Of a stretch of DNA of 64,000 nucleotides, positions 19,487-25,666 are shown one piece after another; the stretch's first letter is position 1; each line of letters opens with the position of its first letter. Both the position numbers and the translations under genes were made by a program. The notes under the pieces were generated by a model, which did not search any database, had not been told where the DNA came from, and saw nothing but the letters and a program-made list of their open reading frames with translations. This stretch comes from Anaerolineae bacterium (GTDB taxonomy: Bacteria; Chloroflexota; Anaerolineae; Aggregatilineales; J027), in contig JAJTXY010000005.1 in assembly GCA_021463865.1 (NCBI GenBank), positions 124,001 through 188,000 on the forward strand. The letters are read 5' to 3'.

Positions 19487-20308
19487 ATGACATATGTTTT
19501 TATCAGTTACTCTAAGCCAGACCGCGAATTTGTTGGAAAACTTGCCGATGATCTTCGAAATGCGGGCATTCAAGCATGGATTGATATTGAAATATTTCCT
19601 GTCGGAGTATCTTGGGAGAAGGCACTCCGAGAGGGGATACGCGAATCTAGCGCATTGATATATGTGGCGAGCGCAAATTCGGTGAATTCCACTTGGATGC
19701 AAAGTGAGGTTTCACATGCAAATGAGATGGGAAAGCCGGTTATTATTGCGGTAATTGATGATGACGGCTTGGGTCAAATTAAAGAATTTTCGACAAAATG
19801 GGTTGATTTTAGGCCAGATTATCATGCGGGACTTAATCTTTTGCTCAAGACCCTACTCTTGTCTTCCGAGGTTGTGAAACCAGAACCTCACGCCATTAAG
19901 GTAGAAGCCACAAAGTCGAAAGGCTACGTTTTTATCAGTTATGCTGAAGAAGATACTGTTTTTGTCATAAAACTGCGCGAATTTTTGAAGGAAAGAGGTT
20001 ATGGTTTTTGGGATTATCAGTCAAGTGACCGTGATTATCACACCCAAATGTTCTTGGAACTTGAAAGTGTAATCCGAGAAGCCTCTGCTACGTTGAGTAT
20101 TTTGTCGCCGGATTGGAAACGTTCGCAATGGGCACCCAGAGAATTTTTGTTTTCTGAAGCTGTTGGTATTCCTGTGTTCTTACTGATGGCTCGTGATATG
20201 GGGCCAACTTTGGTAACTATTGATAAGGCGTACATTGACTTTGTGCGGGATGAGCAAAAAGGTTTTAACGACCTAGATCGTGAACTTCGTCGAAAAGGCC
20301 TCATTTAA
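19487..20308 (+). CDS. Tandem TIR-domain protein
   Basis: 273 residues made almost entirely of two TIR domains (about 1-125 and 146-273). Both begin with the TIR box-1 strand (VFISYSKPD and VFISYAEED). Each has the W-x-x-x-E helix that carries the NADase glutamate in SARM1-like TIRs: Trp70/Glu74 (STWMQSE) and Trp215/Glu219 (SQWAPRE). Thus both domains could be catalytic or one could be a scaffold. There is no sensor domain, signal peptide or membrane helix. A GGAG site precedes the ATG. It lies 48 bases after proA on the same strand but is more AT-rich than proBA, suggesting later acquisition. Bacterial TIR proteins act in anti-phage defence or NAD signalling; no defence partner is recognisable next door. 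Confidence 0.88.
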   Translation: MTYVFISYSKPDREFVGKLADDLRNAGIQAWIDIEIFPVGVSWEKALREGIRESSALIYVASANSVNSTWMQSEVSHANEMGKPVIIAVIDDDGLGQIKEFSTKWVDFRPDYHAGLNLLLKTLLLSSEVVKPEPHAIKVEATKSKGYVFISYAEEDTVFVIKLREFLKERGYGFWDYQSSDRDYHTQMFLELESVIREASATLSILSPDWKRSQWAPREFLFSEAVGIPVFLLMARDMGPTLVTIDKAYIDFVRDEQKGFNDLDRELRRKGLI

Positions 20309-20392: not shown

Positions 20393-20836
20393 ATGACAGA
20401 GCAGGCTACGAATGAAGGCCCAAATGCAAATCTGCCTGAAAAAATCGGACAATATGTGACACGCGAGTGGCTTGATAACAAGCACATTGTCCAATTTCGG
20501 TTATATAGCATTACACGCGATGCGATTGACGAGTGGATTAACTCATCACGCGAAATATTTCTGCAATGGCCTGCTCATGAGCCAATCCTGATCATTCATG
20601 ATTTTACGGAATCGGGTGCGCTTAGTTTGACACCCTATATTCGCAAACGCGCCTCTGAACTTGCCAATGTTCGGCCAGAACTCATGGGGCGGGCGGCGAT
20701 TGTCTTTCCGCGCACCATTGGGGCACAGGCCGCCAAAATTTTTGTCCTCATCAGCTTGCAAAAACATCGGGTACGGCGTGTGTTTTTTACAGTGGATGAG
20801 GCTTTGGGGTGGCTGCGCAACTCCGATGCTGAGTAG
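20393..20836 (+). CDS. STAS/SpoIIAA-like protein, paralogue A
   Basis: 147 residues, no signal or membrane segment. The fold pattern (HIVQFRLYSITRDAIDEW, ILIIHDFTESGALSLTPYIR, AAIVFP, then RRVFFTVDEALGWL) resembles SpoIIAA-like/STAS domains, in which a beta-alpha protein ends with a 'VFxxxDEALxWL' helix. This family call is inferred from pattern only. It has a clear paralogue at 21462-21908. A GGGGGAAAT ribosome site precedes the ATG. It may follow the TIR gene in one transcript (84-base gap). Confidence 0.6.
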   Translation: MTEQATNEGPNANLPEKIGQYVTREWLDNKHIVQFRLYSITRDAIDEWINSSREIFLQWPAHEPILIIHDFTESGALSLTPYIRKRASELANVRPELMGRAAIVFPRTIGAQAAKIFVLISLQKHRVRRVFFTVDEALGWLRNSDAE

Positions 20837-21461: not shown

Positions 21462-21908
21462 ATGCCATCGCCTGAGCTAGAACAATTGAAACGAACCACG
21501 CAAACCGAGTATGTCGCACCCAAAGTTGCCCGTCGCTGGCTAGACAGTGGAGCCATTGTCTGGTTTTCAATCGAGGCCATAGATCGAGAGGTCATTGACG
21601 CATGGGGTCGAGCCGCAGAAGAAGCAATTATGAATTGGCCTGCTGACCGACCATTCTTAACGGTGCAGGATTTTTCAAACTGCGAGGGCTTGGCGCTAAC
21701 ACCCTACATCCGCAAAAAAGGCGAGTATCTTGCCTCACTACGCCCTGATCTGCCGGGCCGAAACGCGGTCATTTTGCGACGCTCAGTGGTGGCACAGGCG
21801 GTGAAGATGTTTTTGATGGCAATGAAAGATAAGCGGCGCGAACGTCGGCTGTTTTTTACCCCCCAAGACGGCATCGAGTGGCTTCAACAATATGGCCGTC
21901 AGGGTTGA
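21462..21908 (+). CDS. STAS/SpoIIAA-like protein, paralogue B
   Basis: 148 residues, clearly related along its length to the protein at 20393-20836. Shared landmarks are RRWLDSGAIVWF, NWPADRPFLTVQDF, LALTPYIRKKGEYLASLRP and RRLFFTPQDGIEWL. It is soluble. The fold assignment to the STAS/SpoIIAA-like group is inferred from pattern. The start codon lacks a good ribosome site. Its last 10 bases overlap the convergent phosphodiester glycosidase gene. The pair arose by duplication, with the UPF0114 gene between them. Confidence 0.6.
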   Translation: MPSPELEQLKRTTQTEYVAPKVARRWLDSGAIVWFSIEAIDREVIDAWGRAAEEAIMNWPADRPFLTVQDFSNCEGLALTPYIRKKGEYLASLRPDLPGRNAVILRRSVVAQAVKMFLMAMKDKRRERRLFFTPQDGIEWLQQYGRQG

Positions 21909-24123: not shown

Positions 24124-24211
24124 CCCATCCTATTCTTAAAAAAGAATCTACAGTAATTACACCTAAAAATCTATGAAGGTTGCAACAGAACACTTGCTCT
24201 TTTGGTCGGGT

Positions 24212-24250
24212 GGGTGTATCTTGAAATAAGATGTGTATACGGGTGTATAC
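24212..24250 (+). promoter_or_regulatory. Iteron-like repeats in the parM-like promoter
   Basis: Three copies of a GTGTAT core (starting at 24214, 24233 and 24243), in the contexts GGGTGTATC, TGTGTATAC and GGGTGTATAC. Spacings of 19 and 10 bases put them on one face of the helix. A TTGAAA (24221-24226) and TATACA (24246-24251) could be the promoter boxes, so the repeats overlap it. A weak inverted copy (TTACACC, 24157-24163) lies upstream. This resembles the repeated sites of parC centromere/operators bound by ribbon-helix-helix ParR proteins. Confidence 0.6.
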
Positions 24251-24269
24251 AGCGAGGCTAAAGGATTTT

Positions 24270-25307
24270 ATGAACCAAAAAGCGGTTGTGGTATTGGACG
24301 CTGGAAATAGTATCATTAAGGCCAAAATGGAGGGGATCGAGTTAGCCTATCCCCATGCCCTACGCAAGTTGACAGAAGCCGAATATAAGCAGGTATTGGA
24401 TCGGGCGGGCACGAATGGCCCACCTTTGGATTATGTCCGGGTCAATGGGGAGCCGTATGTCGTTGGCGAAAGTGCTGAACGACACGGTACCTTGACACGG
24501 CGTTCCGGCGCGGCTCGCTATACACGGGATTATTACGGGATATTTGTTGCCGCAACTATGGCCCGTATGACGGAATGGGGAACACACATCGCACTTTTTG
24601 GCAGCCATCCCCCCGGCGACGTGATTTATCGGGACAAATTGATGGAAGCAGCGGCAGGCAATTGGAAGGTCGAAATTGCAGGCAAAGAACGCAACTTCCG
24701 CATTACCTATGTTAATACATTTGAGGAACCCGTTGGCGGTTTGATGAATTTGCTGCTGGCGGATGATGGCAAACATTATCAGCGGACGGATTTGAATGGG
24801 CGGACGTTGGTGATTGATGTCGGAGGTCATACGACCGACTGGTTGGCCGTGAATCCGGGTGGTGAAGTAGACTATAGCCTAAGTGAAAGTACACCCATTG
24901 GAATTTTGGAAGTGGTGCGTGATTTTGAACGCAGTTTCCGAGCCAAAAATCGAGATGCCACGCGCGGGTTGGCGACTTTGCCACCGGACCGGGTTCGCAA
25001 GGCGATTGCGACGGGTATCTTCCATGGAGGTGGGCGTGACTATCCCTGTGAAGACGAAGTCCGTGAAGCAACCAGTGCCTTGTTGAACCGTATCGCCGAT
25101 ACTTATCAAAATGTTGCAGGTGGACCGCTTCCGTGGGATAGTATAGTGTTAACGGGTGGGGGAAGCGCAATGCTCTATAGTCGGTTCGTACCCCTGTTAG
25201 AACATAGTTCAATCATTCTTGCGGATACCGCAGGGTCAATCCATCTCGCCAATGTACGCGGGGGATTAAAGCTCTGGCGACTATATGAGTCAATGGGATT
25301 GGTATGA
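24270..25307 (+). CDS. ParM/StbA-like actin ATPase
   Basis: 345 residues of the actin/Hsp70 fold. The phosphate-1 motif is VVLDAGNSIIKAK (about 6-18), the phosphate-2 motif is LVIDVGGHTTDWLAV (about 186-200) and the adenosine motif is VLTGGGSAMLY (about 294-304). This set matches the ParM/Alp-type plasmid-segregation actins, which form filaments that push DNA apart. The ATG at 24270 has AAGGA just upstream; the frame extends to 24231 but that ATG lies in the promoter repeats. It overlaps the next gene by four bases. Being on a chromosome between ordinary genes is unusual. Confidence 0.85.
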   Translation: MNQKAVVVLDAGNSIIKAKMEGIELAYPHALRKLTEAEYKQVLDRAGTNGPPLDYVRVNGEPYVVGESAERHGTLTRRSGAARYTRDYYGIFVAATMARMTEWGTHIALFGSHPPGDVIYRDKLMEAAAGNWKVEIAGKERNFRITYVNTFEEPVGGLMNLLLADDGKHYQRTDLNGRTLVIDVGGHTTDWLAVNPGGEVDYSLSESTPIGILEVVRDFERSFRAKNRDATRGLATLPPDRVRKAIATGIFHGGGRDYPCEDEVREATSALLNRIADTYQNVAGGPLPWDSIVLTGGGSAMLYSRFVPLLEHSSIILADTAGSIHLANVRGGLKLWRLYESMGLV

Positions 25308-25666
25308 GCAGAGTAGTGTCATTTCGGCTGGATGAAGATATTGTCGAAGAGGGTCAGGCGCTGGAGATTTTGGAAGCGTGGCAGGCCAAAGGATATAGCA
25401 TCCGGCAGATTATGACATGGGCGCTGATGGCATTAGAAGGTGCCGAGCCACAGAATAATAGTACCCCCGATGGCGAGACGGGTGCAACGATTGCGGAACT
25501 AAAGTCGGTATTGGGTCAGGCACAGGAATTTTTGGAGGTCTTGCGAGATATGAAGGCCATGCCAGATGAAGTGAAACTTCCCAGCCAGCAGAAGCCCATT
25601 TTGAGTGATACATTTATGGCATCAGTCAAAAAAGCGGTTCGGCCCGGACTGAAATTGGATGAATGA
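25304..25666 (+). CDS. Ribbon-helix-helix protein, ParR-like
   Basis: 120 residues. The first ~45 have a ribbon-helix-helix pattern: a strand (RVVSFRLDE), helix 1 (DIVEEGQALEILEAWQAKG), a turn and helix 2 (SIRQIMTWALMALEG). The rest is a long, probably flexible linker with a short helical C-terminus (LSDTFMASVKKAVRPGLK). ParR proteins bind parC through such a domain and the ParM filament end through the C-terminal tail. The ATGA overlap with the ParM-like gene supports that pairing. Family membership is inferred from fold pattern and context. Confidence 0.7.
   Translation: MSRVVSFRLDEDIVEEGQALEILEAWQAKGYSIRQIMTWALMALEGAEPQNNSTPDGETGATIAELKSVLGQAQEFLEVLRDMKAMPDEVKLPSQQKPILSDTFMASVKKAVRPGLKLDE

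What the first reader, a model, noticed from the sequence alone, without database searches (positions are those of the whole stretch)
24204..25666. Plasmid-type ParM/ParR-like segregation cassette with iterons on a chromosome
An actin-like ParM/StbA ATPase overlaps (ATGA) a small ribbon-helix-helix protein with a long tail, and three GTGTAT repeats (cores at 24214, 24233 and 24243; 19 and 10 bases apart, on one helical face) cover the promoter. This is the complete parC-parM-parR layout, but the window is clearly chromosomal (valS, topA, proBA). It may be a captured plasmid system, a chromosomal actin with a new job, or a mark of integrated DNA.
Basis: partly seen in the sequence, partly recalled or inferred. 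Interest (0 to 1): 0.75.

Follow-up and report, generated by a model that had tools for sequence, protein, structure and literature searches.

The report
Chromosomal plasmid-type actin partition cassette
An uncultured Chloroflexota bacterium keeps, on its main chromosome, a small filament-forming actin and its DNA-binding partner of the kind plasmids use to pull their copies apart; it is inherited with the chromosome and almost frozen in sequence, which suggests that the cell has taken it over for a job of its own.

Summary
parM (24270-25307) and parR-like (25304-25666) overlap by ATGA. Upstream lie one GTGTAT core and two GTGTATAC cores exactly 10 bp apart. ParM falls in the plasmid ParM/Alp7A/pSK41 actin family by profile and fold, not in a non-filament ASKHA family. 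The partner's ribbon-helix-helix fold is likely but unproven.

It is chromosomal and old. Gene order is the same in all five sampled species of the genus, composition is native, and no mobility gene was recognised among the flanking genes examined. parM is the 2nd of 130 and 4th of 181 most conserved genes on its contig (dN/dS 0.004-0.018). The promoter-iteron stretch is 68/75 identical in the most distant species, where the next 70 bp are random. Paired 10-bp iterons recur in three further genomes of two genera and are missing where ParR's DNA-reading strand has changed. Cousins (49-53%) sit on plasmid-like, phage and integrase-bearing contigs.

Chromosome-encoded ParMR is already published (Desulfitobacterium, Clostridium; cyanobacterial FcmBC), so this is a new member, apparently the first from Chloroflexota. 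New context: its order has nearly lost canonical ParB (4/154 genomes, against 172/200 elsewhere in the phylum). A segregation role is plausible but unproven; most of the order carries neither system.

The parts
24194..24222 (+). candidate sigma70-type promoter: TTGCTC (24194-24199), 17-nt spacer, TATCTT (24217-24222)
   Evidence: read from sequence; both hexamers invariant in five species; TTGCC plus an AGCAT-type element recurs just before the iterons in G007 and G009. Not found by the consensus scan, so weak as a promoter call
24214..24219 (+). outlying partial iteron GTGTAT(C), overlapping the candidate -10
   Evidence: invariant in all five genus members
24233..24240 (+). iteron 1 GTGTATAC
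   Evidence: invariant in five species; same pair spacing in G007, G009, G018
24243..24250 (+). iteron 2 GTGTATAC, 10 bp from iteron 1; with it the putative ParR operator / parC
   Evidence: paired motif unique in genome without mismatch
24260..24265 (+). ribosome-binding site AAAGGA of parM
24270..25307 (+). parM-like actin ATPase, 345 aa (motifs DAGNSIIK, DVGGHTTD, TGGGS)
   Evidence: Pfam ALP_N and MreB-like_C over cut-off; PHROG 691 'partition protein' 2e-27; PDB profile hit pSK41 ParM 9e-10; fold matches Alp7A, CorM, ParM; motifs
25304..25666 (+). parR-like partner, 120 aa, overlapping parM by ATGA
   Evidence: downstream of parM in relatives; no convincing Pfam, NCBIfam or PHROG family match
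25310..25435 (+). N-terminal strand-helix-helix of ParR-like (residues 3-44), putative ribbon-helix-helix
   Evidence: pattern VVSFRLDE + helix 13-28 + helix 33-44 (low confidence); conserved block in alignment
25598..25651 (+). conserved C-terminal tail motif (LSxxFxASVKKAxRPG), putative ParM-contact helix
   Evidence: conserved in chromosomal and plasmid-like ParR, echoed in the partners on phage-type contigs; role inferred from R1 ParR, whose C-terminal peptide binds ParM (PDB 4a62, listed)

Best explanation
This is a chromosome-domesticated ParMRC (type II partition) module derived from plasmid/phage-type systems. Shown here: ParM belongs to the ParM/Alp actin family; it overlaps the gene of a small partner, as in an operon; a conserved promoter-iteron stretch lies upstream; the module is vertically inherited in the genus and under very strong purifying selection. 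Inferred: dimers of the ParR-like protein bind the paired 10-bp GTGTATAC sites through their N-terminal beta strand, repress the parMR promoter, and by the C-terminal tail nucleate or cap ParM filaments at this one chromosomal site. Most likely use (inferred, about 0.35 on its own): the growing filament pushes or positions this locus on sister chromosomes and so helps segregation in a lineage that lacks canonical ParABS. A non-segregation cytoskeletal use is the chief alternative. The confidence given is for domesticated ParMRC with a host function and iteron autoregulation.
For: Family. Vertical chromosomal inheritance: same order proBA...NAGPA-(PAE)-parMR-MFS-DUF456-Crp-STK in five species; cassette GC 0.511 against window 0.513. 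Selection: dN/dS 0.004-0.018, lowest of the genes compared in the locus in every pair; 2nd of 130 and 4th of 181 conserved genes on the contig. Iterons: 10-bp pairs in G000, G001, G009, G007 and four pairs in G018; 68/75 identity of the promoter stretch against 16/70 next to it in G001; absent in G024/G152, whose ParR strand reads INLQFD/IHLQFD instead of V(V/I)SFRLD. Mobile cousins: plasmid-like L037 with a ParA-type ATPase, phage contig L072 with terminase, L073 with integrase. ParB over cut-off in 4/154 genomes of the order against 172/200 elsewhere in the phylum; ParM-like actins in 51/154 against 13/200.
Against: No experiment. The RHH fold of the partner is unproven (pLDDT 47). There are only two full iterons plus one partial one, few for a centromere, and no second perfect site in the genome, so they may be just an operator. 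Only 11 of 154 genomes of the order carry this clade, so it cannot be the order's general replacement for ParABS. The chromosomal clade is not resolved as one origin (32% of bootstrap trees), and its position differs between genera.
Confidence: 0.7

Rival explanations
1. Repurposed cytoskeleton: as with cyanobacterial FcmBC, the actin and its partner now shape or organise the cell, and the iterons serve only to autoregulate the operon.
For: Precedent FcmBC (PMC12645912): chromosomal ParM-type actin acquired from a plasmid system, acting in cell morphology beside MreB. The present genome also has two true MreBs. The CorM filament is among the two best structural matches (Z 16.1). Few iterons, a single site.
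Against: Iteron spacing and the ParR DNA-reading strand are kept together, so DNA binding is probably still under selection. The sequence profile prefers pSK41 ParM (9e-10) to CorM (0.07). Structural Z values are tied among ParM types and the model is only of medium quality.
Confidence: 0.25
2. Relic or passenger of an integrated plasmid, phage or integrative element, with no host role.
For: Closest non-chromosomal cousins are on plasmid-like and phage contigs.
Against: Same place in five species; parM almost invariant while silent sites change (dS 0.2-1.1). No tRNA in the window, native GC, flanking genes are host genes.
Confidence: 0.05
3. The chromosome supplies ParMR in trans, for a plasmid or phage that carries the iterons, or as an incompatibility trap against incoming elements with related par sites.
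For: ParM-bearing mobile elements occur in the same order, one of them in a genome (G024) that also has the chromosomal copy.
Against: The paired iteron has no other perfect site in the genome (plasmids missing from the assembly would be missed). Mobile cousins do not carry the GTGTATAC pair.
Confidence: 0.08
4. The actin is not a filament former but another ASKHA enzyme, and the small gene is an unrelated regulator.
For: Only that filament formation is untested.
Against: All top structure matches are filament-type actins, with Hsp70-type chains far below; PHROG 'partition protein'; a small partner gene follows parM in chromosomal, plasmid-like and phage copies.
Confidence: 0.03

Closest known systems
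Chromosome-encoded ParMR: Dh-cParM1 of Desulfitobacterium and Cb-cParM of Clostridium botulinum (J Biol Chem 2025, PMC12270681)
   Same: ParM on a bacterial chromosome, syntenic in a genus, among the most conserved genes, RHH-type partner next to it, repeats at the cassette (three palindromic repeats in Cb-cparC).
   Different: Different phylum; only distant similarity (about 16% identity in structural alignment to 8x1i). Here iterons are paired 10-bp sites just after a candidate promoter, and the lineage lacks canonical ParB.
pSK41 ParM / pCBH ParM / Alp7A (plasmid ParMRC systems)
   Same: Best profile match in the PDB (3js6, 9e-10) and among the best folds; parC-parM-parR layout.
   Different: Those are on plasmids; this one is chromosomal, with only two or three iterons.
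FcmBC / CorMR of filamentous cyanobacteria (PMC12645912; PDB 9rmi)
   Same: A plasmid-type ParM-ParR pair moved to the chromosome and kept, beside MreB.
   Different: Weak sequence match (E 0.07); no evidence of a shape role here; DNA-site conservation suggests that DNA binding is kept.
Phage and plasmid-type homologues L072 (phage contig), L073 (61-kb integrase-bearing contig), L037 (plasmid-like contig of G024)
   Same: Same wider clade of ParM (49-53% identity) followed by a small RHH-like partner with a similar tail.
   Different: Next to terminase, integrase or a ParA-type ATPase; no GTGTATAC pairs upstream.

Membership tests
ParMRC (type II plasmid partition) | Actin-fold ATPase of the ParM/Alp family with its nucleotide-binding motifs | tested here: met
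ParMRC (type II plasmid partition) | ParM-closed beta-barrel domain | not testable with these tools
   model pLDDT 64, C-terminal part under 50
ParMRC (type II plasmid partition) | Adaptor gene next to parM with an N-terminal ribbon-helix-helix | tested here: inconclusive
   gene adjacent and conserved; strand-helix-helix pattern, but model pLDDT 47 and no family hit
ParMRC (type II plasmid partition) | Iterated parC/operator at the promoter | tested here: met
   paired 10-bp iterons, conserved across genera; binding itself untested
ParMRC (type II plasmid partition) | Carried by a plasmid and stabilises it | tested here: not met
   chromosomal and syntenic in five species; stabilisation untested. 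So it is not filed as a plasmid partition system
ParMRC (type II plasmid partition) | Nucleotide-dependent dynamic filaments capped by ParR | not testable with these tools
   needs purified proteins
Chromosome-encoded ParMR (cParMR, PMC12270681) | ParM and ParR-like pair on the chromosome, syntenic and highly conserved in a genus | tested here: met
Chromosome-encoded ParMR (cParMR, PMC12270681) | Polymerises in vitro | not testable with these tools
   needs purified protein
FcmBC / CorMR morphology actin | Close sequence relationship to FcmB/CorM | tested here: inconclusive
   CorM 9rmi E 0.07 by profile; fold tied with other ParMs
FcmBC / CorMR morphology actin | Membrane-bound filaments that control cell shape | not testable with these tools
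   needs cells
MreB | Matches PF06723 MreB_Mbl | tested here: not met
   not listed for this protein at E up to 1; two true MreBs lie elsewhere in the genome

The most novel reading that the evidence does not exclude
In a Chloroflexota order that has lost canonical ParB, a captured plasmid-type actin module has become part of the chromosome's own segregation machinery, with its promoter iterons as a minimal chromosomal centromere: the first actin-driven chromosome partition in a bacterium.
Probability: 0.22. Interest if true: 0.88.

Novelty: new member of a known kind. Interest (0 to 1): 0.56.

Why it matters
Whether any bacterium moves its chromosome with a ParM-type actin is an open question; [quoted passage not shown] This locus is a clean natural case: a near-invariant actin, conserved DNA sites, and a lineage without the usual ParB. 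It also gives three separable states for testing ParR-iteron co-evolution: two to four sites, eight sites, and changed strand with changed sites.

Tried and rejected
Integrated element: rejected. MreB replacement: rejected, two MreBs are present. Extra parC sites around the chromosome: none beyond chance (2-mismatch hits 17, reversed-pattern control 13). Close relatives on known plasmids or phages: none, best about 24% identity over the full length. Close clade outside the order: none in the class draw at E 1e-30; that search scored only five candidates a genome and drew only part of the class. PF06406 StbA_N did not ring anywhere, controls included, so that search says nothing. Direct PDB search with the single protein gave only chance matches to antibodies and designed proteins; the alignment profile gave ParMs. 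ParR fold: model too poor to search. The tree could not decide whether the chromosomal copies have one origin. Position relative to oriC: cumulative GC skew of the 267-kb contig was not decisive. Literature: nothing found on ParM in Chloroflexota or on ParB loss in this group in the held library. The DNA pair-statistics were run on upstream stretches chosen because the pattern was seen there, so the P values are descriptive; the independent support is the recurrence in other genera.

Full report
OBSERVATION. The true parM start is most likely ATG 24270, preceded by AAAGGA. The mechanical start at 24231 lies in the iteron region. GTGTAT by itself is common (26 seen, 21.6 expected), but two TGTATAC-type sites 9-11 bp apart are rare in shuffles (P=0.001), and the paired motif has only one perfect place in the 4.9-Mb assembly, this one. 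The first core is weaker: 19 bp away and lacking AC.

WHAT THE PROTEINS ARE. ParM hits ALP_N and MreB-like_C over their cut-offs and PHROG 691, 'partition protein' (2e-27). A profile of nine relatives finds pSK41 ParM (9e-10), pCBH ParM and, weakly, CorM in the PDB. A medium-quality AlphaFold model (pLDDT 64, four sequences) matches ParM, Alp7A, the archaeal actin Ta0583, Dh-cParM1 and CorM chains ahead of everything else; the large rmsd probably reflects poor relative placement of domains. The three nucleotide motifs are present. The partner has no convincing family match. Its N-terminus reads as strand-helix-helix and its C-terminal tail is conserved through chromosomal and plasmid-like copies, as expected of ParR, but the fold model is unreliable (pLDDT 47).

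WHERE IT IS. The window is part of a 267-kb contig. All five sampled species of the genus carry the cassette in the same gene order between NAGPA/PAE and the MFS gene; in G001 the PAE gene is missing, yet the promoter-iteron stretch remains (68/75 identical, against 16/70 in the next 70 bp). In two species of a sister genus (G007, G009) it sits at another but shared place near an acyl-CoA dehydrogenase gene, and in G018, G024 and G152 next to other host genes (pst/phoU, xseA/ychF, a P-type ATPase, named from the reading of the ORFs). In all, 11 of 154 genomes of the order have this clade. Its composition equals that of the window and there is no tRNA. A 49% cousin in G024 lies with a ParA-type ATPase on a plasmid-like contig, a 53% cousin lies on a phage contig with a terminase gene, and a 49% cousin lies on a 61-kb contig with an integrase. 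So the kind is mobile, and this branch has settled.

SELECTION. In four species pairs parM has the lowest dN/dS of the genes compared in the locus (0.004-0.018; proB 0.019-0.031; most others 0.03-0.13). By protein identity it is 2nd of 130 and 4th of 181 genes on the contig, in the company of a LepA-like GTPase. parR is at the 84th-89th percentile.

ITERONS. The 10-bp-spaced GTATAC-type pair recurs in G009, in G007 and four times in G018, in otherwise unalignable upstream DNA. G024 and G152 lack it, and their ParR strand reads INLQFD/IHLQFD instead of VVSFRLD/VISFRLD. In RHH proteins this strand reads the DNA (established knowledge), so the two change together. Only one such switch is seen, so this is suggestive. 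In g1 and g4 the pair sits just after a candidate promoter, which fits autorepression; with so few sites a centromere role is possible but not required.

CONTEXT. The same search that finds canonical ParB in 172 of 200 other Chloroflexota genomes, all 24 from other orders of the class listed among them, finds it over cut-off in only 4 of 154 genomes of this order and not in this genome. ParM-like actins (PHROG 691) are in 51 of 154 against 13 of 200 (Fisher values ignore shared ancestry and must not be read as independent evidence). Many of those are other actins, probably some on plasmids. The link between ParB loss and actin gain is therefore a hypothesis. Two true MreBs are present.

KNOWN OR NEW. 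Chromosome-encoded ParMR pairs have been described in Desulfitobacterium, where cParM1 is syntenic and among the most conserved proteins, and in Clostridium botulinum with three palindromic repeats in a sequence bound by its ParR (PMC12270681). A cyanobacterial case acts in cell shape (PMC12645912). The present cassette is a new member of that kind, with comparative evidence that its DNA sites are kept, and in a lineage where a segregation role would fill a visible gap. How it is used remains open.

Noticed in passing
order-wide (G000 and 153 relatives): Canonical ParB (TIGR00180) is nearly absent from this order of Anaerolineae: 4/154 genomes over cut-off against 172/200 in the rest of the phylum.
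   Followed up: partly
L029 10036-11325 (G004); L003 2757-3764: In the CFX5 genome a 335-aa RRXRR-domain (PF14239) protein, with about 200 nt of non-coding DNA before it, is inserted exactly at the parM/parR junction and leaves both reading frames intact; it looks like an IscB/IsrB-type transposon gene.
   Followed up: partly
19487-20308: Protein with two TIR domains next to proA, not found at this place in the four other species of the genus: possibly a recent insertion.
   Followed up: no
20393-20836 and 21462-21908: Two paralogous STAS-like proteins of 147/148 aa (about 40% identical) without a family name, both conserved in the genus.
   Followed up: no
L038 (G000:C52, 4.7 kb): Small contig with a distant ParM-like protein (370 aa), a preceding 145-aa ORF, a MerR regulator and a 564-aa protein of repeated CTGxxCGGxWxPLDxF units: likely a plasmid or phage piece.
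   Followed up: partly
L037 (G024:C239): Plasmid-like contig carrying a ParM-ParR pair directly followed by a ParA-type ATPase and another small gene: two partition ATPases of different types side by side.
   Followed up: partly
L056 (G009:C20:41-388): A second parR-like gene (60%) at a contig edge in G009, so that genome may hold two cassettes.
   Followed up: no
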